From Falsirhodobacter deserti (GTDB lineage: Bacteria > Pseudomonadota > Alphaproteobacteria > Rhodobacterales > Rhodobacteraceae): DNA of 64,000 nucleotides. Positions 9,025 to 23,896 of this stretch are shown one piece after another. Positions within the stretch are counted from its first letter, which is position 1. Each line of letters opens with the position of its first letter. The stretch covers positions 1,144,311-1,208,310 of the forward strand of contig NZ_ML137218.1 in the NCBI RefSeq assembly GCF_004015795.1. The letters are read 5' to 3'. Below the pieces are notes generated by a model. It was not told the origin of the DNA. It saw only the letters and a list, made by a program, of their open reading frames with translations, and did no database searches. The translations under genes were made by a program, and so were the position numbers.

Positions 9025-9978
9025 TCAATAGCCGGCGACGCGATTCACAAGACCGCGCGGCGTCCGGCCCGCCCGATGGTCTTCGCAATTTTCGACCAAC
9101 TGGCGCATGATCTCCTTCCGGCTGGCATCGGAGGCCTTGTGCGGCGTGATCAGGATGTCCGGCCGCGTCCAGAAGGGGTGGGCGGTGGGCAGTGGCTCCT
9201 GCCGGAACACATCGAGCGTGGCGGATCGGATGCGCCCGGTATCCATTGCGTGCAGCAAATCGTCTTCCACCAGATGCTCCCCCCGCCCGATCTGGATCAA
9301 CGAGGCCCCTGTCGGCATGCGCGCGAACAGGTCCGCGTTCAGGATGTCACGCGTTGCGGGGGTAAGCGGCAACACGTTCACGAGGATATTCGCGCGTGCC
9401 GCGACCTCGCCGATGCTGGCGGGGCCGGTGAACAGCTCTACCCCCGGCTCCGCCTCTCCTTCGGAACTGCGCGCCGCGATGACGCGATAGCCAAGTGCAA
9501 CCAGCGCGCGCCCGACGGCCCGCCCCATAAGCCCGTATCCCAATATCCCAACCGTCACATCAAAGGGCATGGCCGGGCGAAAGCTCCGCTCCCACCGCCG
9601 CTCTGCCTGCGCGCGGGCGTGGTCGTGCATGCGGCGATGGTGCCAGATGACATGAGCGGCTGCGAAACCGGCCATCATCGTTGCCTGCGCGTCGTCGCGG
9701 ACCCGCGCGATCACCGCTTCGGTCGGCAAGCTGGGACAGGCGGTGATGCTGTCCACGCCGGCCGCGATCGAGTGCACCAGTCGCACGTTCGGAAACCGTT
9801 GGAACGCGTTTGCCGGAGGCTTCCATGCCAGCGCAAGATGGACGGCAAGCGGGTCCTCCACCTCCTCGGGTCGCAGCAGGATCAGGCGAGGATCGCGCGC
9901 ATCGGCGAACATTTCCACCAGATCGAACGTGGAGGAAAGGGCGACAACACGCAGCGGTTCAGAAGCTGAAAGGGTCAT
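9025..9978 (-). CDS. D-2-hydroxyacid dehydrogenase, GhrA-like
   Basis: This 317-residue NAD(P)-dependent dehydrogenase resembles glyoxylate/hydroxypyruvate reductase A. The glycine motif GYGLMG is at residues 147-152, and the catalytic residues are R232 (QIGRGEHL), E261 (DVFRQEP) and H280 (TPHKAS). The start is taken as the ATG at 9976-9978, which has AGGA upstream; an earlier ATG at 10122 would add about 48 unrelated residues. It is divergent from the peptide-type transporter operon and could process a 2-oxoacid or glyoxylate made by that pathway (inference). It differs clearly from the other dehydrogenase at 798-1736. Confidence 0.87.
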   Translation of the reverse strand: MTLSASEPLRVVALSSTFDLVEMFADARDPRLILLRPEEVEDPLAVHLALAWKPPANAFQRFPNVRLVHSIAAGVDSITACPSLPTEAVIARVRDDAQATMMAGFAAAHVIWHHRRMHDHARAQAERRWERSFRPAMPFDVTVGILGYGLMGRAVGRALVALGYRVIAARSSEGEAEPGVELFTGPASIGEVAARANILVNVLPLTPATRDILNADLFARMPTGASLIQIGRGEHLVEDDLLHAMDTGRIRSATLDVFRQEPLPTAHPFWTRPDILITPHKASDASRKEIMRQLVENCEDHRAGRTPRGLVNRVAGY

Positions 9979-10250
9979 GGGGCGTCCTGGGTTTTCATCT
10001 TCCGGAAAGGCTGCGCGTGCACGCCCCGCCCCGCAACCGCTACTGTCGATTCTTGCTGCCTCGCATTCGAAAGCGCCGCGTGGGGCATCATTCGAGAGCG
10101 ATCCTGCCCGGATCTTGGGCAATGACCTTCAGGCAAACCCTAACATCCATCCGCGCTTTGACACGATGGTCGCGCGAATCCCACGCTGAAAACATTGCGA
10201 AATATCGGTGGCTGCGCAGAGCGCGCCAACCATGATCGACAGGGATGTTC

Positions 10251-11798
10251 ATGCGACACGTAGTATCCGCCACTCTCGCGCTTCTTCTGACGACGGCACT
10301 CGCGCAGGCCGAGGCCACCCCCGGCGGCACCGCCGACCTGATCGTGCAACCCGAACCCCCGGGGCTGATGATCGGCATCGTCACCAACGGCCCTGCGCTG
10401 GCCGTGGGAGGCAACATCTATGAAAGCCTGTTGCGTTATGACGAGACGCTGGCACCCATGCCCTCGCTTGCCAGAAGCTGGGAGGTGTCGGAGGACGGGC
10501 TGACCTATACCTTCCATCTGCAGGAGGGGGTGACCTTCCATGACGGCACGCCCATGACGGCAGCCGATGTCCTGTTCTCCGTCAACGATTTCCTGATGAA
10601 GACGCAGCCGCGCCACCGCAACACGATGGCGCAGGTGGAAAGCGTGACAGCCCCCGACGAGGCGACGGTGGTCTTCAAGCTGACGCAACCGTTCGAGCCG
10701 TTCATCCGCGCCTTCGCCTATGGCACCATGCCCATCCTGCCCAAGCATATCTATGAAGGCACGGATTACATGACCAATCCGGCCAATGACAAACCTATCG
10801 GCACCGGACCGTTCAGGTTCGTCGAATGGCAGCGCGGCAGCTTCATTAAGCTGGAAAAGAACGATGCCTATTGGGACAAGGGCAAGCCCTATCTGGACGA
10901 GGTGATTTACCACGTCATTCCCGACGCCGCCTCCCGCGCAGTGGCCTATGAGACAGGGGTGGTGGACATCCTGCCCGGCGGCTCGGTCGAGAATTTCGAC
11001 ATTCCCCGCCTGACGGAGCTTCCCAACACCTGCATCACCGACAAGGGCTGGGAATATTACGCGCCGCTGTCCTGGATGTGGCTGAACAACCGCAACCCGC
11101 CGATGGACAACCCGAAGTTCCGGCAGGCCGTCATGTATGCCATGGACCGCCAGTTCGCGCTGGACGTGCTGTGGAATGGCTATGGCAAGGTCGCCACGGG
11201 TCCGATCTCGTCCAAGACGCCGTTTTATTCGCAGCAGGAGCCGGTCTACGAATACGATCCCGACAAGGCCGAGGCGCTGCTGGATGAGATCGGCTATGAC
11301 GGGGAGCCGATCCGCCTTCTGCCCATCCCCTATGGCGAGACATGGCAACGCTGGGCCGAGGCCGTGCGCCAGAACCTTCAGGACGTGGGTATCAAGGTGG
11401 AGATGGAGGCCGCGGACGTGGCCGGCTGGAACCAGCGTACCGCCAACTGGAATTACGACATCGCCTTCACCTATCTTTACCAGAACGGCGATCCGGCCAT
11501 TGGCGTGTCGCGCAACTACATTACCAGCCAGATCGAACAGGGCAGCCCTTGGAACAATGTCGAAGGGTATTCCGACCCCGAGGTCGACCGCATGTTCGAG
11601 GAGGCGGCGCTTGCCTACCCGGCAGAGGCGCGGCAGGAGATCTATGATCAAGTGCAGGTCAAGCTCCAAGAAGACGTGCCCGTTGCTTGGCTGCTGGAGC
11701 TGACCTTCCCCACCATCTACAACTGCAAGGTGCATGACATCGTGACCTCGGCCCACGGCCCCGCGGACTCCATGCGCGACGCCTGGATCGAGCAGTGA
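10251..11798 (+). CDS. ABC transporter substrate-binding protein, family 5 (peptide/nickel type)
   Basis: This 515-residue periplasmic protein has a signal peptide (MRHVVSATLALLLTTALAQA) and the DppA/OppA fold. Signature stretches include LAPSLARSWEVSEDGLTYTF-like sequence near residues 65-90, GVTFHDGTPMTAADVLFS, and PKFRQAVMYAMDR. The ATG at 10251 is preferred over the one at 10245 because AGGG then sits six bases upstream. It starts an operon with two permeases and a fused ATPase. The family binds peptides, glutathione, opines and other solutes, so the ligand is open. Amidase and kinase genes downstream suggest an amide-containing amino alcohol or a modified peptide (inference). Confidence 0.92.
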   Translation: MRHVVSATLALLLTTALAQAEATPGGTADLIVQPEPPGLMIGIVTNGPALAVGGNIYESLLRYDETLAPMPSLARSWEVSEDGLTYTFHLQEGVTFHDGTPMTAADVLFSVNDFLMKTQPRHRNTMAQVESVTAPDEATVVFKLTQPFEPFIRAFAYGTMPILPKHIYEGTDYMTNPANDKPIGTGPFRFVEWQRGSFIKLEKNDAYWDKGKPYLDEVIYHVIPDAASRAVAYETGVVDILPGGSVENFDIPRLTELPNTCITDKGWEYYAPLSWMWLNNRNPPMDNPKFRQAVMYAMDRQFALDVLWNGYGKVATGPISSKTPFYSQQEPVYEYDPDKAEALLDEIGYDGEPIRLLPIPYGETWQRWAEAVRQNLQDVGIKVEMEAADVAGWNQRTANWNYDIAFTYLYQNGDPAIGVSRNYITSQIEQGSPWNNVEGYSDPEVDRMFEEAALAYPAEARQEIYDQVQVKLQEDVPVAWLLELTFPTIYNCKVHDIVTSAHGPADSMRDAWIEQ

Positions 11799-11846
11799 TG
11801 CAAGGCGGGGGCGTCTGCGCCCCTGCCCCGAAGGGACGGTGACCTC

Positions 11847-12818
11847 ATGGCGAAATTCATTCTTGCGCGGCTGATGAAGGCGGCGCTTATCCTTGTCTGC
11901 ATCGCGATCCTGAATTTCCTTCTGATCCAGGCGGCCCCCGGCGATCCCGCGCAGGTCATGGCCGGAGAAGCGGGCGAGACGGACGCGGTGTTCCTGCAGC
12001 AACTGCGCGAGCGGTTCGGCTTGGACCAGCCGCTTTACGTGCAACTTGGCAGGTATTTGGGAACGATCCTGCAGTTCGACCTCGGCTATTCCTACCGCCA
12101 GCAGGTGCCGGTGGCGGATCTGATCTTCGAACGTCTGCCGGCGACGCTGCTTTTGTCCCTCTCGGCCTTCGTAATTTCGCTGGGGCTGGGAACGCTGGCG
12201 GGGGTTCTGGCCTCGGCCCGGCAGGGGCGCTGGCAGGACAGCGTGATCTCCACCATCGCGCTGATCTTCTATGCGACGCCCCTGTTCTGGCTGGCGCTGA
12301 TGGCGGTGCTTCTGTTCTCGGTCCAGCTGGGCTGGCTGCCGGCCTTCGGATACGAGACGGTGGGCGCCGACCACACCGGCCTGCGCCGGATGGAGGACAT
12401 CGCCGCGCATCTGGTGCTGCCCGCGATGACGCTGGGGCTGTTCTTCATGGCCGTCTACGCCCGGATGACCCGCGCCTCCATGCTGGAGGTCAGCCGCCTC
12501 GACTTCGTCAAGACGGCGCAGGCCAAGGGTCTGCGTCCCGCCCTGATCCAGCGCCGCCATGTCCTGCGCAACGCGCTTCTGCCCGTGGTCACGCTGGCCG
12601 GCTTGCAGGCCGGACAGCTTGTGGGCGGCGCCGTGTTGATCGAGACGGTCTTTGCCTGGCCCGGCATCGGGCGGCTGATGTTCGACGCCCTGACGCAGCG
12701 CGATTACAACCTGCTTCTGGGCGTCTTTCTTGTTTCGGCAGCAATGGTGCTGCTGTTCAACCTGATCACCGACATCCTGTATCGTCTGGTCGATCCACGC
12801 ATCCGGGTGACGGCATGA
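11847..12818 (+). CDS. Dipeptide-type ABC transporter permease, DppB-like
   Basis: This 323-residue membrane protein has six predicted helices. The N-terminus (ILVCIAILNFLLIQAAPGDP) and periplasmic ERFGLDQPLYVQLGRYLG are hallmarks of DppB/OppB permeases. The EAA loop RLDFVKTAQAKGLRPALIQ contacts the ATPase. GGACGG precedes the ATG. The gene follows the binding-protein gene after 48 bases, and its end overlaps the second permease gene by four bases. Confidence 0.93.
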   Translation: MAKFILARLMKAALILVCIAILNFLLIQAAPGDPAQVMAGEAGETDAVFLQQLRERFGLDQPLYVQLGRYLGTILQFDLGYSYRQQVPVADLIFERLPATLLLSLSAFVISLGLGTLAGVLASARQGRWQDSVISTIALIFYATPLFWLALMAVLLFSVQLGWLPAFGYETVGADHTGLRRMEDIAAHLVLPAMTLGLFFMAVYARMTRASMLEVSRLDFVKTAQAKGLRPALIQRRHVLRNALLPVVTLAGLQAGQLVGGAVLIETVFAWPGIGRLMFDALTQRDYNLLLGVFLVSAAMVLLFNLITDILYRLVDPRIRVTA

Positions 12819-13654
12819 TGGAGTTCTGGAACCGCTTCCGGCAGAATCGAGGCGCCGTGGTCGGCCTTCTGATCCTGCTGCTGATCGTGGTGCTGGCCGC
12901 GGCCGCGCCACTGCTTTACCCCAAAAGCCCGTGGTCGATGGTGCAGCGCCCCTTCCTCGCCCCCTTCGCCATGGACGCCTTCCCGCTGGGCACCGACCCG
13001 ATGGGGCGCGACGTCGCCTCGGCCGTGGCGCATGGGGCGCGCGTCTCGCTGTTGGTGGGGCTGGTCTCGACGGTGGTGTCCATGCTGATCGGGGTGCCGA
13101 TCGGGGCCATCGCAGGCTATTTCGGCGGCCGGATCGACGATGCGCTGATGCGCTTCACCGAACTGTTCCAGACCGTGCCCAGCTTTGCCCTTGCCGTGGT
13201 GCTGGTCGCGATCTTCCAGCCCTCGCTCTATTCCATCGTCATCGCGATCGCGCTGGTGTCATGGCCCCCTGTCGCGCGGCTGTTGCGGTCCGAGGTCATG
13301 GCGCTGCGCTCGCGCGAGTTCGTGGAGGCGGCGATCCTTTCGGGGCAGCGGGCACGCACGATCATCCTGCGCCAGATCCTGCCCAACACGCTGTCGGCGA
13401 TCATCGTGATGGCCTCGATGATGGTGGCGGCCGCGATCCTGATCGAAAGCTCGTTGTCCTTCCTTGGCCTTGGCGATCCCAACGTCATGAGCTGGGGCTA
13501 TGTCATCGGCGCAGGCCGCACCGTCATCCGGCAGGCCTGGTGGGTCAGCTTCTTTCCCGGCCTTGCCATCCTGCTCACCGTTCTTGCGCTGAACCTCATC
13601 GGCGAGGGGTTGAACGACGCCATGAACCCGCGCCTGAAGAGGAGGGGAAAATGA
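12815..13654 (+). CDS. Dipeptide-type ABC transporter permease, DppC-like
   Basis: This 279-residue partner permease has an N-terminal helix (VVGLLILLLIVVLAAAAPLL), the DppC signature PLGTDPMGRDVASAVAHGAR, and an EAA loop reading SREFVEAAILSGQRARTIIL. It is coupled to the upstream permease through ATGA and to the ATPase gene through another four-base overlap. Confidence 0.93.
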   Translation: MMEFWNRFRQNRGAVVGLLILLLIVVLAAAAPLLYPKSPWSMVQRPFLAPFAMDAFPLGTDPMGRDVASAVAHGARVSLLVGLVSTVVSMLIGVPIGAIAGYFGGRIDDALMRFTELFQTVPSFALAVVLVAIFQPSLYSIVIAIALVSWPPVARLLRSEVMALRSREFVEAAILSGQRARTIILRQILPNTLSAIIVMASMMVAAAILIESSLSFLGLGDPNVMSWGYVIGAGRTVIRQAWWVSFFPGLAILLTVLALNLIGEGLNDAMNPRLKRRGK

Positions 13655-15279
13655 AGCACGAAACCATCGCCAAACCCGTCGTGGAGATCGAGCGCCTGTC
13701 GGTCGCCCTGCCCGATGGCGCCGACCGCCCCTATGCCGTGGACCGGGTCAGCTTCCGCATCGCGCCCGGCCAGCTTCTGTGCGTCGTGGGCGAAAGCGGG
13801 TCTGGCAAGTCCATGTCGGCCAATGCGCTGATGGGCCTCCTGCCCGAAGGTGTGCGCGTGTCGAACGGGCGCATCCTGCTGGATGGAACCGACCTTCTCA
13901 CCCAGTCCGAGGACGCGCTGCACGACATCCGGGGCCGCCGCGTGGCCATGATCTTTCAGGAGCCGATGACGGCGCTGAACCCCCTGATGAAAGTTTCGGC
14001 CCAGATCGAGGAGGTGTTCGAGGCGCACGGCCTTCTGACCCCGGCCGAGCGGCGCGCCAAGGCGCTGTCCCTGCTGGAGGAGGTGGGCCTGCCCGATCCG
14101 CCCCGCGCCGCCGCCTCCTTTCCCTTCCAGCTTTCGGGGGGGCAGCGCCAGCGGGTGATGATTGCCATGGCTCTTGCGCTGGAGCCGCAGGTCCTGATCG
14201 CGGACGAACCCACCACCGCGCTGGACGTGACGACGCAGGCCCAGATCCTGCGCCTGATCGCGCGGCTCCAAAGGGACCGCAACATGGCGGTCATGTTCAT
14301 CACCCATGATTTCGGGGTGGTGGCCGAGATCGCGGATTACGTTGCCGTCATGCAGCTTGGCCGCGTGGTCGAGGAAGGCACGGTGGAACAGGTCCTTTTC
14401 AACCCGCAGCACGACTATACCCGTAAGCTGATCGCGGCGATCCCGAAGATGCAGGCCGGCATGCGCGCGCCCGTCACCTCTGCCCCCATCCTGACGGTGG
14501 AGGGGTTGACCAAGACCTATCGCCAAGGCGGCGGACTTTTCTCCCGCCCACGGGAGGTGCATGCGGTGCAGGACGTTTCCTTCTCGCTCGCCAAGGGTGA
14601 AACGCTGGGCATCGTGGGCGAAAGCGGCTCGGGCAAATCGTCGGTCGGGCGGTGCCTTGTGCGGTTGCAGGACCCAGATGGCGGCCGCGTCCTGCTGGAC
14701 GGGCAGGACATGGCCACCCTGAGGGGGGAGGAACTGCGCCGCGTCCGCCGCCGGATGCAGATGATTTTCCAGGACCCGTACGGCAGCCTGAACCCCCGCG
14801 AACGCGTAGGCCGCATCATCGCCTCCGGCCCCATCGCCTATGGCGAGGACCCGGCAAAGGCGATGGCCGAGGCTGCCGACCTGCTGGAGATGGTGGGCCT
14901 GAAACGTGACGCCGCACACCGATTCCCGCACGAATTTTCCGGCGGACAGCGCCAGCGCATCGGCATCGCCCGCGCCCTTGCGCTGAAGCCCGGCATCATC
15001 ATCGCCGATGAGGCTGTCTCGGCCCTCGACGTCTCGATCCAGGCGCAGGTGCTGGACCTGCTGCAAAGCCTGAAGCGCGACCTTGGCCTGTCACTGATCT
15101 TCATCACCCACGACCTGCGCGTGGCGGCCCAGATCTGCGACCGCGTCATGGTCATGCAGAAGGGCCGGGTCGTGGAACTCGGCTCCGGCGCCGAGATCTT
15201 CGATGCCCCCCGCCACCCCTATACCCGCAGTCTGATCGACGCCATCCCCGGCCGCGCCCACGAAGCGCGGATGATCTGA
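13651..15279 (+). CDS. Fused dipeptide-type ABC transporter ATPase (DppD-DppF)
   Basis: This 542-residue protein carries two complete ATPase modules. Walker A GESGSGKS occurs at about residues 47-54 and again at 324-331, each followed by LSGGQRQR/FSGGQRQR signatures and Walker B segments (LIADEPTTALD, IIADEAVSALD). Each half ends with the oligopeptide-type C-terminal HPYTR or HDYTR motif. It replaces the usual separate DppD and DppF. The start is the ATG at 13651 inside the ATGA overlap; the open frame upstream lies within dppC. It powers the transporter encoded by the preceding three genes. Confidence 0.94.
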   Translation: MKHETIAKPVVEIERLSVALPDGADRPYAVDRVSFRIAPGQLLCVVGESGSGKSMSANALMGLLPEGVRVSNGRILLDGTDLLTQSEDALHDIRGRRVAMIFQEPMTALNPLMKVSAQIEEVFEAHGLLTPAERRAKALSLLEEVGLPDPPRAAASFPFQLSGGQRQRVMIAMALALEPQVLIADEPTTALDVTTQAQILRLIARLQRDRNMAVMFITHDFGVVAEIADYVAVMQLGRVVEEGTVEQVLFNPQHDYTRKLIAAIPKMQAGMRAPVTSAPILTVEGLTKTYRQGGGLFSRPREVHAVQDVSFSLAKGETLGIVGESGSGKSSVGRCLVRLQDPDGGRVLLDGQDMATLRGEELRRVRRRMQMIFQDPYGSLNPRERVGRIIASGPIAYGEDPAKAMAEAADLLEMVGLKRDAAHRFPHEFSGGQRQRIGIARALALKPGIIIADEAVSALDVSIQAQVLDLLQSLKRDLGLSLIFITHDLRVAAQICDRVMVMQKGRVVELGSGAEIFDAPRHPYTRSLIDAIPGRAHEARMI

Positions 15280-15291
15280 AGGAGCAAACCC

Positions 15292-16716
15292 ATGGACGTG
15301 ATCCTGAAAGCCGACCTGGGCGAGATGACCGCCGCCGAACTATCCCGCCTGTTTGCCAGCGGCGGCGCCTCGCCCGTGGAGGCCGCGCAAGCCTCGCTGG
15401 ACCGGATCGAACGGTTCAACCCGGAGGTCAACGCCTTCGCCCATGTCACGCCCGAGATGGCGCTGGAACAGGCGCGCGCCTCGGAGGCGCGGTGGAAGGC
15501 GGGCGCCCCCCTTTCGCCCATTGACGGCGCGCCGACGACGATCAAGGAACTGACGCCCGTGAAGGGTATCCCGCATCGGCGCGGCTCGAAGCTGGGCGCG
15601 CACGAACCCGCCGCGCAGGAGTTCCTGATCATGGAACGCCTGCGCGCGGCGGGCGTGACGGTGCTGGGGACCACCACCAGCCCGGAATTCGGCTGGAAGG
15701 GCGTGACGCATGGTCCCGCCTTCGGCAACACGCTGAACCCGTGGCGAACCGATCGCGCCTCGGGCGGATCCTCGGGCGGCGCGGCGGTGGCGGCGGCGCT
15801 GAACATGGGCGTGCTGCATGAAGGATCGGACGGGGCAGGATCGATCCGGATCCCGGCAAGCTGGTCGGGCTGCTTCGGCATCAAGCCCTCCTTCGGCTGG
15901 ATCCCCTCCGACACCTTCACCCCGCTTTTCGAACTGGCGCATCGCGGCCCCCTGACCCGCACAGTGGAGGATGCGACGCTGTTCATGGCTGCCACGGCCG
16001 GACCTGATCCCCGCCAGATGTATGGCTGGTGCCCCAGCCCCGTGCCGGACTGGACCGCCGCTTTGGCGCAAGGGGTGAAGGGCCTGCGGATCGGCTACAG
16101 CCGCAACCTCGGCTATGCCGAGGTGTCTCCGGACGTAGCCGCCGTCGTGGATCGTGCGGCCGCCCGCGTGGCCGAACTTGGCGCCATCGTGGAGGAGGTC
16201 GATCCCGGGTTTGCCAACCCGCAGGACGCGCTGATCGCCCTCTGGTATGCAGGCGAGGCGCTGTCGGTCGATATGGCCGATCCCACCCCGGAACGCTTGG
16301 CCCTCATGGACCCCGGCTTGGTGGAGATCTGGCGCAAGGGCAAGGCGCTGACCGGGACCGAGGTCGTGGCCGCCGAACAGGTGCGTGCCACCCTGCGCGT
16401 AACCATGGCGCAGTTCCACCAGCGGTATGACGCGCTGATGCTGCCCACCATGCCAACCACGGCGATTGAAGCCGGGACCGATTTCCCCGGCGGCGTGAAA
16501 GGCAAGGACTGGTCCGACTGGTCGCCCTTCACCTATCCGTTCAACATGACGGGGCAGCCGGCGGTGTCGGTGCCCTGCGGCATGGACGGGGGCGGGCTGC
16601 CCGTGGGCCTGCAATTCGTAGGGGCCATGTACCGCGACGACATTGTGCTGCGGCTGGCCGCGGCCTATCAGGCGGCATGGCCCGAACAAACGCTCTCTGC
16701 CCCGCGCCGCGCATGA
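15292..16716 (+). CDS. Amidase signature family amidohydrolase
   Basis: This 474-residue enzyme has the Ser-cisSer-Lys machinery: K85 (TTIKELTPVKG), the serine pair of GGSSGG around 160-161, and the nucleophile S184 (GSDGAGSIRIPAS). Known members hydrolyse amides, including aryl and fatty acid amides, 6-aminohexanoate dimer and Glu-tRNA amides. Aspartimide-type or GatA functions are unlikely because gatB and gatC are absent. AAGGAG precedes the ATG by seven bases. It follows the ATPase gene after 12 bases and overlaps the kinase gene by four. It probably releases an amine or amino acid from the imported compound. Confidence 0.9.
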   Translation: MDVILKADLGEMTAAELSRLFASGGASPVEAAQASLDRIERFNPEVNAFAHVTPEMALEQARASEARWKAGAPLSPIDGAPTTIKELTPVKGIPHRRGSKLGAHEPAAQEFLIMERLRAAGVTVLGTTTSPEFGWKGVTHGPAFGNTLNPWRTDRASGGSSGGAAVAAALNMGVLHEGSDGAGSIRIPASWSGCFGIKPSFGWIPSDTFTPLFELAHRGPLTRTVEDATLFMAATAGPDPRQMYGWCPSPVPDWTAALAQGVKGLRIGYSRNLGYAEVSPDVAAVVDRAAARVAELGAIVEEVDPGFANPQDALIALWYAGEALSVDMADPTPERLALMDPGLVEIWRKGKALTGTEVVAAEQVRATLRVTMAQFHQRYDALMLPTMPTTAIEAGTDFPGGVKGKDWSDWSPFTYPFNMTGQPAVSVPCGMDGGGLPVGLQFVGAMYRDDIVLRLAAAYQAAWPEQTLSAPRRA

Positions 16717-17690
16717 CGGTCACCGGAATCGAACTGGCCCACCGGGCCGAGATCATCACGCCCGGTCGTGCCGCCGCCATCGCGCAACACATCTATGGCC
16801 TGCAGGGCCGCGTGGAATGGCTGTGGGGGGAGAAGGACTCCAACTACCGCCTGACGTTGGAGGATGGGCAGGCCTTCCTTCTGAAGATCCTGACACCGGG
16901 AGAGGATCCCGGCGTCACCGCCATGCACTCCGCGGCGTTGGCGCATGTGGAACTCCGCGATCCCTTCATCCCCGTGCAGCGCGTGATCCGCACGCGCACC
17001 GGCGCCCTCGACGCCCGGATCGAGGATCGGTCCGTTCGGCTCGTGACCTTTCTGCCGGGTGTGACGCAGGGGGCCGGCCCCGTGGACGACGCGCAACGGC
17101 ATGCCGTGGGGGCGCTGCTGGCGCGGATGCAGGCGGCGCTGGTGGATTTCACCCATCCCTCCGCCCACCATCCGCTGACATGGAACACGAGCCTTTCGCC
17201 CTCGCTTGCACGCCACATCCCCCTGCTGCCGCCGGACTGGCGTGAGGAGGTTGCGGCAACCCTTGCGCGGTTCAGGGACGTGGTCGTGCCCCGCCTGCCG
17301 CATTTGCCCTCGCAGGTGATCCACAACGACTTCAACCGCGAGAATATCCTCGTCGATCCGACCGAACGCAGCCGCGTCACCGGCATCATCGACTTTGGCG
17401 ACCTGTGCCACGCCGCGCGGCTGATCGATGTGGGTGTGGCAGCCTGTTACCAGCAGGACACGGACGATCCCGTCCACTCGGTTCTAGCCATGCTGGAGGG
17501 TTACGGCCCGCTGCTGCCGGAGGAACGCCGCCTCCTCTGGCCGACGATCCGCGCGCGGATCGCCATGCGGCTCCTGATCCCCTACTGGCGGGCAAGCCTG
17601 TTCCCCGAACAGGCCGACCGCATCCTTGCCAAATGCCCCGCCGCATGGGAGCAGCTTCGCGCCAGCGGCCAAGTGGAGACGCTGCCATGA
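16713..17690 (+). CDS. APH/choline-kinase fold kinase, hydroxylysine kinase-like
   Basis: This 325-residue small-molecule kinase has an N-lobe motif GEKDSNYRL, catalytic H204-N-D206 in HNDFNRENIL, and a metal-binding IIDFGD. Its N-lobe pattern resembles the GxDxN of 5-hydroxylysine kinase-like proteins. It should phosphorylate a hydroxyl on an amino-containing substrate. The adjacent gene encodes a PLP enzyme of the phospho-lyase type, and kinase plus lyase is the known logic of hydroxylysine and phosphoethanolamine breakdown. The ATG at 16713 overlaps the amidase stop. It is unlikely to be a drug-resistance enzyme given this context. Confidence 0.82.
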   Translation: MTVTGIELAHRAEIITPGRAAAIAQHIYGLQGRVEWLWGEKDSNYRLTLEDGQAFLLKILTPGEDPGVTAMHSAALAHVELRDPFIPVQRVIRTRTGALDARIEDRSVRLVTFLPGVTQGAGPVDDAQRHAVGALLARMQAALVDFTHPSAHHPLTWNTSLSPSLARHIPLLPPDWREEVAATLARFRDVVVPRLPHLPSQVIHNDFNRENILVDPTERSRVTGIIDFGDLCHAARLIDVGVAACYQQDTDDPVHSVLAMLEGYGPLLPEERRLLWPTIRARIAMRLLIPYWRASLFPEQADRILAKCPAAWEQLRASGQVETLP

Positions 17691-18928
17691 CCCGGATGAT
17701 CAACGGCTTCAACGGCAACACGGCCGCCCTGCCCGAGGCGGAGCGCCACCTGGTCGAACGCCGGCAGCGCCTGCTCGGCCCCTCCTACCGGCTGTTTTAT
17801 GACCATCCGCTGCATCCCGTTCGAGCCGAAGGCGTTCGCCTTTATGATGCCGAGGGGGTGGAGTATCTGGACTGCTACAACAACGTTCCTTCGGTCGGGC
17901 ATTGCCACCCCCATGTGGTGGCGGCGATCCAGCGGCAGGCGGCGGTGCTGAACACCCATACCCGCTATCTTGACGAGGCGGTTCTGGATTACTCCGAGCG
18001 GCTGCTGGCCACCTTCCCCGCCGCGCTGGACCGGGTGATGTATACCTGCACGGGATCGGAGGCTGTGGACCTGGCCCTGCGCATCGCGCGGTTCCACACG
18101 GGGGCCGCCGGCATCATCATCAGCGAAAATGCCTATCACGGCCTAACTGCGGCAACGGCGGCGATCTCTCCCAGCCTTGGCGACAGCGTTCCGTTGGGGC
18201 CGGAGGTGATGACCGTGCGTCCCGGCCCCGGCATGGCCGCCGAGGTGGAGGCCGCGATCGCCCATCTGGCCCGGCGCGGCATCCGCACCGCCGCCTTCAT
18301 CGCCGACAGCATCTTTTCCACCGACGGCGTGATCGCAGACCCGCCCGGCTTTCTGCAGGGGGTGATCGAGGCCGTCCACCGCGCCGGCGCGCTTTACATC
18401 GCCGATGAGGTGCAGCCCGGCTTCGGGCGGCTTGGTAGCCATTTCTGGGGGTTCATGCGCCACGGCATCACCCCTGACATCGTGGTCATGGGCAAGCCCA
18501 TGGGCAACGGCATGCCGATCGCCGCCGCCGTCGCCCGCTCCGAGGTGCTGGAGCGGTTCGGCCTCGAAGTCCGCTATTTCAACACCTTCGGCGCGAACCA
18601 TGTGTCGGTCGCGGCGGCGGCGGCGGTGCTGGACGTAATTGAGGCGGAGGGGCTGGTGGCCAATGCCGCCCGCGTGGGGCAGCACATGGCGGCTGGAATG
18701 CGAGGGATGGGAGAGGTGCGGGGCGCGGGCCTGTTCCTTGCGCTGGATCTTGGCAATGCCGCCCGCGCGGCGCGCGTGGTCAACGGGCTCCGGGCGCGCC
18801 GGGTGCTGATCGGTGCCTCGGGCAAGGATGGCGCCTCGCTGAAGATCCGCCCGCCACTGCCTTTCACCGAGGCCGATGCCGACATCTTCCTGTCCGCCCT
18901 TGCCGACACGCTTGCCCACGACGCATGA
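17687..18928 (+). CDS. Class III PLP enzyme, phospho-lyase-like (AGXT2L type)
   Basis: This 413-residue fold-type I PLP protein is annotated by family as an aminotransferase. The N-terminal YNNVPSVGHCHPHVV is characteristic of ethanolamine-phosphate and 5-phosphohydroxylysine phospho-lyases, which eliminate phosphate and ammonia to give an aldehyde. The PLP lysine is K270 (MGKPMGNG) and the cofactor aspartate lies in IADEVQPGFGRLG. The start ATG at 17687 overlaps the kinase stop by four bases. Transaminase activity cannot be excluded from sequence alone. Confidence 0.8.
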   Translation: MTRMINGFNGNTAALPEAERHLVERRQRLLGPSYRLFYDHPLHPVRAEGVRLYDAEGVEYLDCYNNVPSVGHCHPHVVAAIQRQAAVLNTHTRYLDEAVLDYSERLLATFPAALDRVMYTCTGSEAVDLALRIARFHTGAAGIIISENAYHGLTAATAAISPSLGDSVPLGPEVMTVRPGPGMAAEVEAAIAHLARRGIRTAAFIADSIFSTDGVIADPPGFLQGVIEAVHRAGALYIADEVQPGFGRLGSHFWGFMRHGITPDIVVMGKPMGNGMPIAAAVARSEVLERFGLEVRYFNTFGANHVSVAAAAAVLDVIEAEGLVANAARVGQHMAAGMRGMGEVRGAGLFLALDLGNAARAARVVNGLRARRVLIGASGKDGASLKIRPPLPFTEADADIFLSALADTLAHDA

Positions 18929-19643
18929 TCCTTCCCCCTGCCCCGTCCAAATCCGCCCGCACCTATGACGCGTTGCGCGGCCGCATCATCGCCATGCGCC
19001 TGCGCCCCGGGGCCCGTCTGGCGGAGAGGGAGCTTTGCGCCGAACTTGGCATCTCGCGCGCGCCCTTCCGCGAGGCTGTATGCAGGCTGGCGCAGGAGGG
19101 GCTGGTCATGGTTGTGCCGTCGGATGCAACCTTTGTGAACCCGATCGTGATGCGGCAGGTGGTGGTCGGACATTTCATGCGCGCGAATCTCGAGGTTCCG
19201 GCCGTGCTGCTGGCCAGCCAGCGGGCCGGCAAGGCGGACCTGCGTGCGCGCATCACATCCTCGATCGGATGGAGGCCGCGGCGGAAGCGCGCGATGCCGA
19301 TGTCTCCTTTGCACTAGATTGCGCCTTTCACCGCCTGATCTTCGCCGTGGCAGGGATCGAGGAGGCGTGGCACGTCCTGCATGGCGCAACGGGACAGTTG
19401 GACCGGCTGCGGCGATGGGTCTTTCCCTCCCACCCCGGTCTCTTTGCGGAAGCATTGGACGAACACCGCAGGATCCTTGCCGCGCTGGAGGCTGGCGACG
19501 GCGCGGCAGCGCAGGCCGCAATGAAAGGGCATCTTGACGACACCGTCGCCGTCCCCGCCCGCATCCTTGCCGAAGATCCGGGGATGATCCGCATGGATGC
19601 GGAGGATCTTCAGATGTTCACCTCGGTGATCCGGTCCGCCTGA
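18925..19643 (+). pseudogene. GntR-family regulator (FCD type) with an internal frameshift
   Basis: The first frame (from ATG 18925) gives a normal GntR winged helix: AERELCAELGISRAPFREAV. It reaches RAGKADLRAR, then runs into nonsense and stops at 19317. The FCD domain continues in another frame from about 19255 to the stop at 19643: ILDRMEAAAEARDADVSFAL, then AFHRLIF and DEHRRILAALEAGD. A single missing base around 19240-19260 explains the break. It is either a real inactivating mutation or a sequencing error. The start overlaps the phospho-lyase gene by four bases, so the regulator belongs to that operon. Its 3' end overlaps the convergent M20 hydrolase gene. Confidence 0.82.
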
Positions 19644-20869
19644 TCCAGCGCCAGCCCCAACAGCAGCCTTGCCCCATTGGCCGCCCAATGCGGCTCGCAC
19701 CATTCACCCTCGGCATGGCTGATACCGTCGCGGCAGGGCACGAATATCAGCGCAGAAGGGCAAAGATGCGCCAGCGACAGCGCGTCATGCGCGGTCAGGG
19801 TCATCATCTCGCGCACGGTCAGGCCACGGCCGCCAGCCACATCCGCTGCCCGCTTGCGCAGATCGGCGGGAAACACCGTCGCCTGCCGCAGATGGGACGG
19901 CGCAATATCGATACGCGTGCGCGTCGCCTCGGCAATCGCGTCCGCCGCAGCACGGATGCGGGCGTTGATATCGGCCAAGCCTTCGGCTGTGTCATGCACA
20001 GCCATATAGGTCAGCTTTGTCAGGTGCGGGATGTTCACGCGGTTGTTGGGCCAGTTCTCGATCACGGTGGCGGAAACGCGTCCCGCGGGATCAACCGCCG
20101 CGCCCACCTCCTCGATCGCAAGGATCAGGCGGGCGGCGGCCAGAAGCGCGTTGCGGCGCTGACCCATCGCCTCGATCTGCGCGTGGGCGTTGGCGCCGTG
20201 AATGTCCACAAAGCCCGAGCACATGAAGGTGCTGTGCGTCACGAGGCCGATATCCGTGGCCTCCGCCTCCAGCAGCGGGCCCTGTTCGATATGCAGTTCC
20301 AGATAGCGATGAACAGGGCGCGGGGCGGCGGGAACCGGACCCGCAATGCCATTGCGCGCCAGTTCGTCCGACAGGCGGGTGCCGTCGCGGTCGGTGCGCG
20401 ACAGTGCCTCCTCCAGCGGCAGAAGGCCCGCAAAAACTGCAGAGCCCATGACGCCGGGCTGAAAACGTGCGCCCTCCTCGTTGGTCCAGTTCACGACTTC
20501 GATCGGGTGGCGAGTGGTGATGCCGGCGGCGTTCAGCGCCCGCACCACAACCAGCCCCGCCACGACGCCAAGGACGCCATCGAACCGCCCGCCGGGCATC
20601 TGCGTGTCCAGGTGGCTGCCGATCATCACGGGGGGCAGATCCTCGGACCCTGTCCGTCGCGCAAAGATGTTGCCGATGGCGTCGGTGGTGACGATCATAC
20701 CCGCCTCCTCCGCCCAAAGGCGGAACAGGGCGCGCGCTGCGGCATCGGTTTCCGACAGCGCCGGACGGAAGCACCCGCCCGCCGCGGTCCCGCCTATGGC
20801 GCCCAACGTCATCAGGTCCGACCAGAGCCGGCCGCCATCGATATCAGGATCGGTCATGTCTATGTCCAT
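19610..20869 (-). CDS. M20-family N-carbamoyl amino acid hydrolase (beta-ureidopropionase/allantoate amidohydrolase type)
   Basis: This protein of up to 419 residues is a zinc amidohydrolase with metal motifs IGSHLDTQ, GRFDGVLG and NEEGARF, the HIEQGPLLE loop and the C-terminal FVPCRDGISH. The family hydrolyses N-carbamoyl-L-amino acids, N-carbamoyl-beta-alanine or allantoate, releasing ammonia and CO2. Two starts are possible: 20869, or 20857 with GGA seven bases upstream. It ends an operon with a polyamine-type transporter and a transaminase, which suggests a beta-ureido acid feeding a beta-amino acid transaminase (inference). It is unrelated in fold to the nitrilase-type carbamoylase at 4749-5672. 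Confidence 0.88.
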   Translation of the reverse strand: MDIDMTDPDIDGGRLWSDLMTLGAIGGTAAGGCFRPALSETDAAARALFRLWAEEAGMIVTTDAIGNIFARRTGSEDLPPVMIGSHLDTQMPGGRFDGVLGVVAGLVVVRALNAAGITTRHPIEVVNWTNEEGARFQPGVMGSAVFAGLLPLEEALSRTDRDGTRLSDELARNGIAGPVPAAPRPVHRYLELHIEQGPLLEAEATDIGLVTHSTFMCSGFVDIHGANAHAQIEAMGQRRNALLAAARLILAIEEVGAAVDPAGRVSATVIENWPNNRVNIPHLTKLTYMAVHDTAEGLADINARIRAAADAIAEATRTRIDIAPSHLRQATVFPADLRKRAADVAGGRGLTVREMMTLTAHDALSLAHLCPSALIFVPCRDGISHAEGEWCEPHWAANGARLLLGLALDQADRITEVNI

Positions 20870-20878: not shown

Positions 20879-21658
20879 TCAGCGGCTGCGGGCCGCGTTC
20901 CGGTGGCGCAGCCACAGCCCCGTGACGCCGACGCAGACCGTGGCGATGATGAATGAAAACGCCGCCGCCGCGATGGCGGGCGAGAGATTGTCGCGCAATT
21001 GCAGGAACATCTGCTGGGCCAGCGTCCGCTGGTTCGGGCCGGCCAGGAAGATGGTCAGCACCACCTCGTCCAATGAATTGGCGAAGGCAAAAACGAAACC
21101 GGTCACGATCCCCGGCAAGGCCATGGGCAAGGTGACCAGCCACAGCACCTTGGGCGGCGCGGCACCAAGGCTTGCCGCCGCACGCTCGGCCGTGCGGTCC
21201 ACGCTGGCCAGCGCCGCAGCCACCGACAGGATCGTCAGCGGAATGGACAGAACGGCATGCCCGACGATAACGCCCGCATAGCTGCTGCTCAGCCCGATGC
21301 GGGCGTATACAAGCTGCATCCCCACCCCCAGCACCACGGCGGGTGTTGCCATCGGCAGCAAGAACGCGATCCGCGTGAGCGTCATGGGCAACCCGAAGTG
21401 GCCCCGGAGGCCAAGCGCCGCCAGCGTCCCCAGCACGGTCGCCAGCGCCGAGGAGGCGACGCCCACGATAAGGCTGTTCCAGATCGACAGCCGCCAGGCG
21501 GGGTCGGTGAACAGCACGGTGAACCAGCGCAGCGACCATCCTTCTATCGGAAGCACCATGAAGCTGCCGGCGTTGAAGGCGATGGGCAGGATCACCAGCA
21601 GCGGCCCCATCAGGAAGATGACGCACACAAGGCCCCAGGCGAACTTGATGACACCCAT
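20879..21658 (-). CDS. Polyamine-type ABC transporter permease, PotC-like
   Basis: This 259-residue inner-membrane permease has an N-terminal helix (FAWGLVCVIFLMGPLLVILP) and several further helices. The EAA loop reads ERAAASLGAAPPKVLWLVTLP. A conserved SLDEVVLTIFLAGP segment is typical of PotC and relatives. It lies three bases after the PotB-like gene and nine before the M20 hydrolase gene. Confidence 0.92.
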   Translation of the reverse strand: MGVIKFAWGLVCVIFLMGPLLVILPIAFNAGSFMVLPIEGWSLRWFTVLFTDPAWRLSIWNSLIVGVASSALATVLGTLAALGLRGHFGLPMTLTRIAFLLPMATPAVVLGVGMQLVYARIGLSSSYAGVIVGHAVLSIPLTILSVAAALASVDRTAERAAASLGAAPPKVLWLVTLPMALPGIVTGFVFAFANSLDEVVLTIFLAGPNQRTLAQQMFLQLRDNLSPAIAAAAFSFIIATVCVGVTGLWLRHRNAARSR

Positions 21659-21661
21659 CCC

Positions 21662-22828
21662 CTATCTCCGCGCCAAACGGTCAGACAGGCGCTGGTAAAG
21701 CGCGAAGATCGCAACCGTCACGATCAGCAGCACAAGGCCAAGCGCGCTGGCCAGCGACCAGTTCGCCTGCCGGATCGCATAGTTCGCCACGAAAGAGCTG
21801 ATGAGTTGGTCATCCCCGCCCCCCAGCAACGCCGGCAGGATGTAGAACCCCAGCGAGGTCATGAACACCAGCAGGGCCCCCGACACGATCCCCGGCATTG
21901 CCAGCGGCAAAAGCACGGTGCGGAAGGCCGCCAGTGGCCGCGCCCCCATGGAGGCCGCCGCCATCATGAGGCTCTTCGGCATTGCAATCAGCACGCTGTA
22001 GATCGACAGGATCATGAAGGGCAGCATCACATGCGTCATCGCGATCAGCACGCCGGTTCGGGTGAACAGAAGCGGCACCGCCTCGCGCAGGCCGCTGAGG
22101 GTGCGGATGATTTCGGCCATCACACCGTCCTTCTGCAGGATGATCAGCCACGCCATGCAGCGCACCAGAACCGATGTCCACATCGGCAGCAGCACCGCCG
22201 CCATCAGAACCTGCCGCACCCAGCCGGTCGTGACGGCCAGCAGCATGGCAAAGGGCAGTCCGATCAGGGCGCAGAACAGCGTCACCAGCGCCGAGATCCC
22301 GATCGTGCGCAAAAAGACCTGCCGGTGAACGGATTGGTCAGGGGGCATCGCCTCGACTCCCGCCTCGCCGCGCTGCAGGTCCAGCGCGCCCAGAAGGAAG
22401 CGGGTCGTATAGGGCGGAAGGGCCGACCGGATCGTATTCCAGAAGACCGGATCCTCCCATCGCTCATCGATGGAGGGAAGGTCGACGGCCCCCTCGGCCC
22501 GCTCCACGGCCTGCTGCGTGCGCCCGAAAAGCGACCGAAAGCCCGATGTCTGGGTGTTCAGACGACGCACCGCATCACCCATTGCCGTTTGCGCTGTCTC
22601 TCGGATGTCGGCGACCAGCGCCTCCTGCATGGCGGGAGTCGGAGGCGAGACCCCATCCCATTCGTCGATCACGCGGCCAAGGTTCGGAAAGGCGCGGGCG
22701 ACCTCGTTGTCCGATACCGCCGTCGTGGCGATGCTGACCAGCGGCCAGACGAAGAACAGCGCAAGGAACAGGATCAGGGGCAGAACCAGCGCGAAGGCGC
22801 GGATCCCCAACGTGCGAGACCCCGTCAT
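21662..22828 (-). CDS. Polyamine-type ABC transporter permease, PotB-like, with a long periplasmic insert
   Basis: This 388-residue permease is about 100 residues longer than a usual PotB. The first helix (FALVLPLILFLALFFVWPLV) is separated from the rest of the channel by roughly 140 mainly polar residues predicted to be periplasmic, from SDNEVARAFPNLGRV to about VHRQVF. The remaining helices and the EAA loop (AAASMGARPLAAFRTVLLPL) are normal. The start ATG at 22826-22828 overlaps the ATPase stop as ATGA; the upstream open frame lies in the ATPase gene. Confidence 0.9.
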   Translation of the reverse strand: MTGSRTLGIRAFALVLPLILFLALFFVWPLVSIATTAVSDNEVARAFPNLGRVIDEWDGVSPPTPAMQEALVADIRETAQTAMGDAVRRLNTQTSGFRSLFGRTQQAVERAEGAVDLPSIDERWEDPVFWNTIRSALPPYTTRFLLGALDLQRGEAGVEAMPPDQSVHRQVFLRTIGISALVTLFCALIGLPFAMLLAVTTGWVRQVLMAAVLLPMWTSVLVRCMAWLIILQKDGVMAEIIRTLSGLREAVPLLFTRTGVLIAMTHVMLPFMILSIYSVLIAMPKSLMMAAASMGARPLAAFRTVLLPLAMPGIVSGALLVFMTSLGFYILPALLGGGDDQLISSFVANYAIRQANWSLASALGLVLLIVTVAIFALYQRLSDRLARR

Positions 22829-23883
22829 GCCGGCAGCACCCAGCAATCCTCGGGCGTGAAGGAGGCGTTGATTGGCATTCCTGCGCGCAGCCCGTTCGCG
22901 CTGCACGGCAAGCGCCCGATCAACGTGCCGTCCGGCCCGTCCAGCGCCACACGCAGGTGATCGCCCATATAAACGCGGTCCGTCACTTGGCAGGACAGGA
23001 CGTTTCCGCCCTTTCCGCCCAGATGCAACCTTTCGGGCCGCAGGCAGATGGACACATCGACGCCCGGCTCCAACCGCTGATGGACGCGGATGCGCGTATT
23101 GCCCGGCAGGGCGATCACGGAACCATCGGCCCCTGTCTCGGCCACCTTGCCGGTCATCAGGTTCGTTTCCCCGATGAACTCGGCCACGAAACGGGTCGCG
23201 GGCCGGTCATAGATGACTTCGGGCGTGCCGATCTGTTCGATGCGGCCATTGTTGAAGACGGCGATGCGGTCGGACATAGTCAGCGCCTCGGACTGGTCAT
23301 GCGTCACGAAGACGATGGTCAGCCCGAGGCGCCGGTGCAGGTCGCGGATGTCCAGCTGCATCTGTTCGCGCAGCCGCTTGTCCAGCGCGCCCAGCGGTTC
23401 GTCCATCAGCACGACCCGCGGTTCGAACACCAGCGCGCGGGCAAGGGCCACGCGCTGCTGCTGCCCGCCGGAGAGTTGCGACGGGCGGCGTTCGGCCAGA
23501 TGGCCCAGCTCCACCATCTCCAGCGCGCGGGCGATCCGGGTGCGTGCCTCGGACCGCGCGATCTTGCGCATCCGCAGCGGGAAGCCGACATTCTCGGCCA
23601 CGCTCATATGCGGGAACAGGGCATAGTTCTGGAACACCATTCCCATGTTGCGCCGGTGCGGGGCCAGATCGTCGATCCGGTATCCGTCCAGCCAGATCCC
23701 GCCCTCGCTGGGGCGTTCGAACCCCGCGATCATCGTCAAAAGCGTGGTCTTGCCCGATCCCGAGGGGCCGAGAAGGCTCACGAACTCCCCCTGAAAGATG
23801 TCGAGCTGCAGGGAGTCGATGACACGGCTCGCCCCGAAGGACTTGGACACGCCATCGCAGCGGATGAAGGGCGAACGGCTCAA
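22825..23883 (-). CDS. Polyamine-type ABC transporter ATP-binding protein, PotA-like
   Basis: This 352-residue ATPase has Walker A GPSGSGKTT, Q-loop NYALFPHMS, signature LSGGQQQR, Walker B VVLMDEPLGALD and switch HDQSEALTMS. A C-terminal TOBE domain follows from about residue 270 (RPERLHLGGKGGNVLSCQV). The family imports putrescine, spermidine or other cations and small organic acids. It follows the binding-protein gene by 13 bases. Confidence 0.94.
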   Translation of the reverse strand: MSRSPFIRCDGVSKSFGASRVIDSLQLDIFQGEFVSLLGPSGSGKTTLLTMIAGFERPSEGGIWLDGYRIDDLAPHRRNMGMVFQNYALFPHMSVAENVGFPLRMRKIARSEARTRIARALEMVELGHLAERRPSQLSGGQQQRVALARALVFEPRVVLMDEPLGALDKRLREQMQLDIRDLHRRLGLTIVFVTHDQSEALTMSDRIAVFNNGRIEQIGTPEVIYDRPATRFVAEFIGETNLMTGKVAETGADGSVIALPGNTRIRVHQRLEPGVDVSICLRPERLHLGGKGGNVLSCQVTDRVYMGDHLRVALDGPDGTLIGRLPCSANGLRAGMPINASFTPEDCWVLPA

Positions 23884-23896
23884 TCCCGGATCCCTA

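What the first reader, a model, noticed from the sequence alone, without database searches (positions are those of the whole stretch)
10251..19643. Importer - amidase - kinase - phospho-lyase operon: a possible undescribed route for an amide-linked hydroxy-amine
A family 5 transporter with fused ATPases, an amidase, a hydroxylysine kinase-like APH protein and an AGXT2L-type PLP enzyme are joined by overlaps of 4 to 12 bases. The kinase/lyase pair is the known two-step removal of an amino and a hydroxyl group (as for 5-hydroxylysine or ethanolamine phosphate). Adding an amidase and a peptide-type importer suggests that the substrate enters as an amide or modified peptide, is hydrolysed, phosphorylated and then eliminated to an aldehyde. 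I know of no described pathway with exactly this set.
Basis: partly seen in the sequence, partly recalled or inferred. Interest (0 to 1): 0.75.

Follow-up and report, generated by a model that had tools for sequence, protein, structure and literature searches.

The report
Conserved amide-to-aldehyde amine operon
A set of bacterial genes that seems to import an amide of an amine carrying a hydroxyl group, cut the amide, add phosphate and then strip off phosphate and ammonia is kept together in plant- and sea-associated bacteria, but nobody has yet shown what it eats.

Summary
The operon is real. An SBP5 importer (four genes, ATPases fused), a PRK06169-type amidase, an APH-fold kinase and an AGXT2L-type PLP enzyme lie head to tail. 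Against solved structures the lyase profile scores 507 and 481 bits to two phospho-lyases, 247 to the next enzyme; the kinase profile's best, remote match is a microcompartment aminopropanol kinase. The seven genes occur together in 15 of 28 close genome loci and 4 of 4 fetched plasmid loci. Kinase and lyase are neighbours in 97 of 104 loci. Related importers sit beside acetylpolyamine-amidohydrolase-type genes in 8 of 12 loci. Best reading: uptake of an N-acylated, hydroxylated amine (perhaps a diamine or polyamine), deacylation, phosphorylation, loss of phosphate and ammonia to an aldehyde, with the transaminase handling a second amine. Substrate and all reactions are untested. Phosphotransferase plus aminotransferase with hydrolases and GntR is precedented in RMM1 microcompartment loci: a new variant of a known kind. 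The downstream GntR/FCD regulator is split over two frames.

The parts
9025..9972 (-). D-2-hydroxyacid dehydrogenase (GhrA-like)
   Evidence: PF02826 147.5 bits; a relative (at least 40% identity) within 9.9 kb in 7 of 30 loci with kinase of at least 45% identity, two of them weak matches; beside 6 of 12 related importer loci
10245..11798 (+). SBP family 5 solute-binding protein (start 10245 or 10251)
   Evidence: PF00496 318 bits; 67-78% identical in 14 full genome loci and in pieces (58/70%) in L130, 62% in Thioclava
11847..12818 (+). ABC permease B
   Evidence: PF00528/PF19300
12815..13654 (+). ABC permease C
   Evidence: PF00528/PF12911; 4-base overlap with B
13651..15279 (+). fused double ABC ATPase
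   Evidence: two ABC_tran stretches; 4-base overlap with permease C
15292..16716 (+). amidase-signature hydrolase, PRK06169 family
   Evidence: NF004815 548.7 bits, cut-off 506; TTIKE, GGSSGG and DGAGSIR motifs present (their catalytic meaning recalled)
16713..17690 (+). APH-fold small-molecule kinase, likely amino-alcohol kinase
   Evidence: PF01636 95 bits; model pLDDT 95.3; profile best hit 6ef6
17687..18928 (+). class-III PLP enzyme of the ammonio-phospho-lyase (AGXT2L) type
   Evidence: 5g4i 305 and 6tor 293 bits, next 150; profile 507/481 against 247
18925..19643 (+). GntR/FCD regulator, split over two frames
   Evidence: a homologue cluster in 15 of 28 loci, representative 245 aa in one frame
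19610..20869 (-). M20 hydantoinase/carbamoylase-type hydrolase
   Evidence: TIGR01879 302 bits, cut-off 204; within 9.5 kb of the kinase in 10 of 30 close loci
20879..24934 (-). Pot-type ABC importer (PotC, B, A, D); membership less sure
   Evidence: PotD best solved relative 4eq7 'Polyamine' 173 bits; 49-62% identical PotCBAD beside transaminase-kinase-lyase in L070 and L074, i.e. PotD of at least 45% in 2 of 30 close loci and 3 of 74 others
24956..26353 (-). class-III omega-transaminase (AT3)
   Evidence: NF004767 PRK06105 732.6 bits, cut-off 517; homologue near the kinase in 17 of 18 amidase-bearing loci
26491..27951 (+). MocR-type regulator divergent from AT3; membership of the cluster uncertain
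   Evidence: NF052281 510 bits, below its cut-off of 650

Best explanation
A catabolic operon for an N-acylated (amide-linked), hydroxylated amine. The SBP5 importer takes up the amide (inferred). The amidase frees the amine inside the cell (inferred). The kinase phosphorylates the hydroxyl next to the amino group (family-based). The PLP enzyme removes phosphate and ammonia by 1,2-elimination, leaving an aldehyde (family-based). The omega-transaminase AT3 removes a second, terminal amino group or processes a co-released omega-amino acid, and the M20 enzyme cuts a further amide or ureido bond (inferred). The aldehyde is oxidised by an enzyme encoded outside the window (inferred). Likely substrate class: acylated hydroxy-diamine or polyamine, such as an acylated hydroxyputrescine. 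Likelihoods: kinase then phospho-lyase 0.85; amidase in the same route 0.8; acylated amine of di/polyamine type 0.45; a particular compound not determined. Only gene order, homology, motifs and a predicted kinase fold are shown here.
For: Lyase closer to two phospho-lyases than to any transaminase in the PDB, with NNVxxVGH, GKP[ML]GNG and DEVQxGFGR motifs (79, 90 and 97 of 99 lyases) that 0 of 27 AT3 sequences carry. Kinase catalytic motifs present, model pLDDT 95.3, profile best match the aminopropanol kinase 6ef6 (rank 13 by fold). Kinase-lyase adjacency 97 of 104. Amidase within 9 kb of the kinase in 18 of 30 close loci (within 400 bases in 16), 0 of 74 others; plasmid amidases of at least 60% identity lie next to such a kinase in 6 of 6. 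On a 104-row kinase tree (quick method) the amidase label needs 3 changes, shuffles 16.8 on average, 0 of 500 as low. Sister importers with acetylpolyamine-amidohydrolase-type genes in 8 of 12 loci (type checked by Pfam for two and by PDB for one); L034 has such a gene, the importer and a kinase-lyase pair side by side.
Against: No enzyme or growth data. The window has no acetylpolyamine-amidohydrolase-type gene and no aldehyde dehydrogenase like the two probed for. The M20 enzyme and the dehydrogenase have no clear step. 12 of the 30 closest kinase loci lack the amidase, some having a nitrilase-type enzyme or a ureohydrolase plus GGT-type enzyme instead. In acetobacters kinase, amidases, M20 and AT3 occur without an adjacent lyase. 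L055 has importer parts, amidase, AT3 and kinase but no lyase near; its genome holds one elsewhere, 55% identical. Four of the 12 sister importer loci show no such deacetylase (one is a 4.9-kb contig), and L204 and L205 come from one genus. By fold alone homoserine kinase, not the aminopropanol kinase, is the closest. Kinase-lyase pairs next to sugar-acid genes show that the module serves other substrates. Six other genomes of the window's genus lack the kinase (1 of 7).
Confidence: 0.55

Rival explanations
1. The same route, but the released amine is simply ethanolamine or 1-amino-2-propanol: the operon uses amides of small amino alcohols (N-acylethanolamines and the like), giving acetaldehyde or propionaldehyde.
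For: The closest solved lyases include human ethanolamine-phosphate phospho-lyase and the profile's closest solved kinase is an aminopropanol kinase. The genome has no EutB (PF06751, 0 matches, control rings in 1 of 14), so another ethanolamine route would not duplicate it.
Against: Does not explain AT3 (17 of 18 amidase-bearing loci), the M20 enzyme, or deacetylase genes of acetylpolyamine type beside sister importers. Kinase similarity to 6ef6 is remote (50.5 bits).
Confidence: 0.2
2. Hydroxylysine or another hydroxylated amino acid (hydroxyornithine, 4-amino-3-hydroxybutyrate) released from a modified peptide or acyl derivative; kinase and lyase yield an amino acid semialdehyde or succinate semialdehyde.
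For: Known logic of hydroxylysine kinase and phosphohydroxylysine phospho-lyase (recalled; of the 2012 paper only the reference entry was seen). A related architecture adds a ureohydrolase and an SSADH-like dehydrogenase, as might be expected for guanidino precursors.
Against: No hydroxylysine-specific feature could be tested; no peptidase seen beyond the M20 and amidase families.
Confidence: 0.17
3. The amidase and importer handle an unrelated amide and are only transcribed with the kinase-lyase pair.
For: The kinase-lyase pair occurs in many contexts without the amidase (0 of 74 loci with kinase under 45% identity have it).
Against: The set is kept together in Rhizobiaceae, Paracoccaceae, Breoghania and an Erwiniaceae genome, on contigs and plasmids, including Thioclava where the kinase is only 33-34% identical.
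Confidence: 0.08

Closest known systems
RMM1 (Rhodococcus and Mycobacterium microcompartment) amino-alcohol locus
   Same: [quoted passage not shown] a microcompartment aminopropanol kinase (6ef6; title) is the profile's best solved match.
   Different: No microcompartment shell gene in this genome (PF00936, 0 matches); SBP5 ABC importer; amidase-signature enzyme; omega-transaminase. Whether RMM1's hydrolases are of the amidase family was not checked.
Ethanolamine-phosphate / phosphohydroxylysine ammonio-phospho-lyases (human ETNPPL, PDB 6tor; bacterial phospholyase PDB 5g4i)
   Same: Sequence and motifs of the PLP enzyme.
   Different: Substrate unknown; here with its own kinase, importer and amidase.
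PRK06148-type fusion protein (kinase part and class-III part in one chain)
   Same: Kinase matches its N-terminal part (202 bits), lyase its C-terminal part (405 bits); frames of about 1000 aa holding the kinase occur in the same family. That the middle is an M23 domain is recalled.
   Different: Separate genes here, whole-model cut-off (1128 bits) not reached.
Herbaspirillum rubrisubalbicans operon Hrubri_0242-0245
   Same: Annotated hydroxylysine kinase next to an annotated 4-aminobutyrate aminotransferase; the operon's Lrp/AsnC gene was up-regulated with sorghum (PMC13275390, passages seen).
   Different: Haloacid dehalogenase and Lrp regulator instead of importer and amidase; whether that aminotransferase is of the lyase type was not tested.
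Importer clusters with acetylpolyamine-amidohydrolase-type gene (found here: L198-L201, L204, L205, L207, L034)
   Same: Importer of the same kind (SBP5 49-63% identical in these loci), with the dehydrogenase in 6 and AT3 in 4 of the 12 loci examined.
   Different: Deacetylase and often an ArgE/DapE deacylase in place of the amidase; kinase-lyase pair seen only in L034.

Membership tests
AGXT2L-type ammonio-phospho-lyase | Class-III PLP fold with catalytic Lys | tested here: met
   PF00202 222 bits; GKPMGNG at residue 269 (its Lys as the PLP residue is recalled)
AGXT2L-type ammonio-phospho-lyase | Clearly closer to characterised phospho-lyases than to transaminases | tested here: met
   507 and 481 bits against 247 for the next
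AGXT2L-type ammonio-phospho-lyase | Lyase-type motifs in place of transaminase motifs (my own fingerprint, drawn from these sequences) | tested here: met
   DEVQxGFGR in 97 of 99 lyases and 0 of 27 AT3; strict NNVxxVGH in 79 of 99 and 0 of 27; N65, N66, V67 invariant in the 31 rows of A2
AGXT2L-type ammonio-phospho-lyase | Release of phosphate and ammonia | not testable with these tools
   needs an assay
Amino-alcohol / hydroxylysine kinase (APH fold) | APH fold and catalytic HxDxxxxN, DFG and Lys | tested here: met
Amino-alcohol / hydroxylysine kinase (APH fold) | Nearest solved relative an amino-alcohol kinase | tested here: inconclusive
   profile: 6ef6 first, 50.5 bits, homoserine kinase 2ppq 45.4; by fold 2ppq first, 6ef6 rank 13; by single sequence only 2ppq, E 0.0006
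Amino-alcohol / hydroxylysine kinase (APH fold) | Phosphorylation of an amino alcohol | not testable with these tools
   needs an assay
RMM1 microcompartment locus | Phosphotransferase, aminotransferase, hydrolase, GntR in one locus | tested here: met
   the GntR gene is split
RMM1 microcompartment locus | Shell proteins | tested here: not met
   PF00936: 0 matches in the whole genome, control rings in 2 of 14
Amidase-signature enzyme, PRK06169 family | Score over the curated cut-off; Ser-Ser-Lys motifs | tested here: met
   548.7 against 506 bits; motifs
Acetylpolyamine catabolic cluster | Acetylpolyamine-amidohydrolase-type gene | tested here: not met
   none in the window by tblastn with the L205 protein at E 1e-8; rest of the genome not tested
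Ethanolamine ammonia-lyase route | EutB | tested here: not met
   PF06751: 0 matches in the genome

The most novel reading that the evidence does not exclude
An undescribed catabolic pathway for acylated hydroxy-polyamines (for example acylated hydroxyputrescine or hydroxyagmatine, as in plant amides), in which import, amidase cleavage, phosphorylation and ammonio-phospho-elimination open the hydroxylated end and an omega-transaminase opens the other, shared by rhizobia, Rhodobacterales and an Erwinia relative.
Probability: 0.25. Interest if true: 0.65.

Novelty: new variant of a known kind. Interest (0 to 1): 0.5.

Why it matters
Kinase plus ammonio-phospho-lyase is a little-known way to deaminate amino alcohols, studied (as far as I recall) in very few enzymes. 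Here it is tied by gene order to an importer, an amidase and a transaminase over several bacterial families, in genomes and on plasmids, which makes an unknown natural nitrogen source directly testable: one binding-protein screen and two enzyme assays could name it. It would also give function to genes now labelled only 'amidase', 'phosphotransferase' and 'aspartate aminotransferase family protein' (labels as).

Tried and rejected
Rejected: plain transaminase reading of the PLP enzyme (scores and motifs). Rejected as membership: RMM1 microcompartment (no shell gene). Considered and dropped for lack of a test: pantothenate amide, hydroxyectoine, aminoglycoside-like substrate, opines (SBP5 similarity to AgaA 160 bits and to agrocinopine-binding AccA about 100 bits, not above other family-5 proteins).

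Led nowhere: operator palindromes upstream of SBP5 in the window and 14 relatives (none with four simple patterns); sigma-70-type promoters in 9900-19800 (0 found, 1.2 expected); G+C of the cluster (0.66 against 0.645 for the window), no compositional sign of recent transfer; structure model of the lyase only moderate (pLDDT 84.5) and not used further; a census of neighbours of the 45%-and-under kinases gave no common extra gene.

Literature: ten searches in an open-licence library listed no paper on this gene set that I recognised; subscription papers are not held and only the top rows of each list were seen, so this is not proof of absence. Papers: PMC8154272, PMC4207490, PMC8217296, PMC13275390 and PMC9608346: passages found by term only; PMC12138971: one reference entry; all others listing or start of abstract only. 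Veiga-da-Cunha 2012 and the aminopropanol-kinase paper: content recalled, not held.

Sampling limits: loci L054-L133 are the best 80 of 89 found by kinase similarity; of 39 places in other genomes, 20 were fetched as regions, chosen by score and with unfused kinases favoured; of 6 plasmid amidases of at least 60% identity, 4 regions were read and 2 judged by coordinates; of 29 SBP5 places in other genomes, 11 were fetched, one on a 4.9-kb contig. L130 did not enter the kinase tree (broken frames). In L084, L130 and L213 some genes match only in pieces.
Full report
What is there. The window is part of a 2.98-Mb genome; the nearest named kinase relative on the tree is Pseudooceanicola (Paracoccaceae). 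On the + strand lie SBP5 (10245-11798), permeases B and C (11847-12818, 12815-13654), a fused double ATPase (13651-15279), an amidase (15292-16716), an APH-type kinase (16713-17690), an AGXT2L-type class-III enzyme (17687-18928) and a GntR/FCD regulator (18925-19643). With these starts five junctions overlap by 4 bases; two are gaps of 48 and 12 bases. The regulator is split: its N-terminal part and its FCD part are in different frames.

The PLP enzyme. By single sequence the best solved relatives are a bacterial phospholyase (5g4i, 305 bits) and human ethanolamine-phosphate phospho-lyase (6tor, 293 bits); the next is an aminotransferase at 150. With a 31-row profile: 507, 481, then 247. Motifs separate lyases from the omega-transaminases of the same loci: DEVQxGFGR in 97 of 99 against 0 of 27, GKP[ML]GNG in 90 of 99 against 0 of 27. 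The genome has five further places matching the lyase at E of at most 1e-15; the best, 35% identical, is AT3.

The kinase. Catalytic motifs are present; K58, H204, D206, N211, D227, F228 and G229 are invariant in a 33-row alignment. The model is confident (pLDDT 95.3). By fold, homoserine kinase 2ppq is first (TM 0.76 by query) and the microcompartment aminopropanol kinase 6ef6 is rank 13; by sequence profile 6ef6 is first (50.5 bits) before 2ppq (45.4). Both relations are remote.

Conservation. Scanning one genome per GTDB species with the kinase gave 80 kept loci. There is a gap in identity: 28 loci have kinases of 45-54%, the other 52 have 39% or less. With four plasmid loci and 20 family loci added, 104 loci were scored: a lyase of at least 40% identity lies within 400 bases in 97. 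Of the seven others, two (L049, L053) are fused frames of about 1000 aa, L050 has its lyase some 850 bases on, and L055, L109, L111, L115 show none nearby. The amidase (at least 55% identity) is within 9 kb of the kinase in 18 of 30 loci with kinase of at least 45% and in 0 of 74 others. All seven genes are found in 15 of 28 close genome loci and in 4 of 4 fetched plasmid loci; in L084, L130 and L213 some match only in pieces, as if frames were broken. Of the 13 incomplete loci, L060 and L073 are contigs under 8 kb, and the L055 stretch ends inside the ATPase gene.

Reverse test and controls. In 72,556 plasmid records the amidase of at least 60% identity occurs in 6, each with a kinase of this family next to it: by fetched region in four, by coordinates in two. 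In three fetched Thioclava plasmids the order is M20, LysR, SBP5, B, C, ATPase, AT3, amidase, kinase, lyase, though the kinase is only 33-34% identical. In 385 genomes of the class, 79 have an amidase at E of at most 1e-110, but apart from the window's own none listed exceeds 50% identity; in 29 of those loci no kinase lies within 1.5 kb. In the window's genus 1 of 7 genomes (its own) has the kinase at E of at most 1e-60.

Missed parts. AT3, a class-III transaminase, is near the kinase in 17 of 18 amidase-bearing loci, between ATPase and amidase wherever both are on the stretch. In the window it is at 24956-26353, behind a Pot-type importer and an M20 hydrolase on the minus strand; it passes the PRK06105 cut-off (732.6 against 517). 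M20 homologues are near 10 of 30, dehydrogenase homologues near 7 of 30 (two of the seven weak). L070 and L074 join a PotCBAD importer (49-62% identical to the window's) to a HisD-like gene, AT3, kinase and lyase, so the window's second importer may belong to the same metabolism; this rests on 2 of 30 close loci. The window's PotD is closest to a solved 'polyamine' binding protein (4eq7, 173 bits).

What the importer may carry. Related importers were found in 19 other genomes of 385. Of 12 loci examined (11, SBP5 49-63% identical, plus L034), 8 carry a histone-deacetylase-fold gene; for two Pfam gives PF00850, and the one searched in the PDB is closest to acetylpolyamine amidohydrolases (321 bits; HDAC6 constructs 240; dimethoate hydrolase 152). 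An ArgE/DapE deacylase is in 6 of 12, an aldolase-II gene in 6, the dehydrogenase in 6 and AT3 in 4. L204 and L205 are of one genus, so not all are independent. L034 holds such a deacetylase, a DapE-like gene, the importer and a kinase-lyase pair together. This is why I prefer an acylated amine of polyamine type to a peptide. It is an inference by association.

Other architectures. L071, L076 and L079: ureohydrolase, AT3-like, GGT-type, SSADH-like dehydrogenase, kinase, lyase. L056, L066, L067 and L137: a nitrilase-type gene with Pot-type importer genes. L134 and L135: polar amino acid importer and sugar-acid genes. The kinase-lyase pair looks like a module fitted to several amine sources, in several of them with some C-N hydrolase. 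On a quick kinase tree the window lies in a 30-row clade (SH-aLRT 99) of 18 amidase-bearing and 12 other rows; the label needs 3 changes against 16.8 in shuffles. Long branches in that tree make deeper placement unsure.

Mechanism. Shown: gene order, family, motifs, predicted kinase fold. From family knowledge: phosphorylation of a hydroxyl beside an amine and elimination of phosphate and ammonia. Inferred: amide import, amidase step, AT3 on a second amine, M20 on another amide or ureido bond, oxidation elsewhere.

Against what is known. The closest described locus I found is RMM1: phosphotransferase, aminotransferase, several hydrolases, permease and GntR regulator around 1-amino-2-propanol (PMC4207490, passages). 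This genome has no shell protein, so it is not a member, but part of the chemistry may be alike. An operon with an annotated hydroxylysine kinase and an aminotransferase is described in Herbaspirillum, its Lrp gene up-regulated with sorghum (PMC13275390, passages). Ten literature searches listed no report of the present set.

Verdict. New variant of a known kind; substrate unknown.

Noticed in passing
window 18925-19643: GntR/FCD regulator split over two frames although the operon it ends looks intact; relatives have a one-frame gene (representative 245 aa). Sequencing error or real loss of control cannot be told apart.
   Followed up: partly
window 798-8626 (minus): Hydantoin-use cluster: D-2-hydroxyacid dehydrogenase-like and LysR-like genes (by eye), Asp/Glu/hydantoin racemase (PF01177), D-hydantoinase (TIGR02033 over cut-off), nitrilase-fold hydrolase (PF00795) and a polar amino acid ABC importer (by eye), directly beside the operon.
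   Followed up: partly
window 93-779 (minus): Reading frame that looks like an IS3-type OrfA transposase (by eye, no family search) at the left end of the catabolic region.
   Followed up: no
L109, L111, L115 (Gluconobacter, Komagataeibacter, Novacetimonas): AT3, dehydrogenase, two amidases, SSADH-like dehydrogenase, kinase and M20 gene in a row, with no lyase found next to the kinase.
   Followed up: partly
L071, L076, L079 (Rhizobium sp. and unnamed Rhizobiales): Ureohydrolase, AT3-like, gamma-glutamyltransferase-type, SSADH-like, kinase and lyase genes in a row: possible route from a guanidino or gamma-glutamyl amine.
   Followed up: partly
L134 and L135 (Agrobacterium cucumeris and Mesorhizobium plasmids): Kinase-lyase pair beside a polar amino acid importer (annotated lysine/arginine/ornithine type in L135) and sugar-acid genes (L-arabinonate dehydratase, mandelate racemase family), suggesting a sugar-linked amine.
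   Followed up: no
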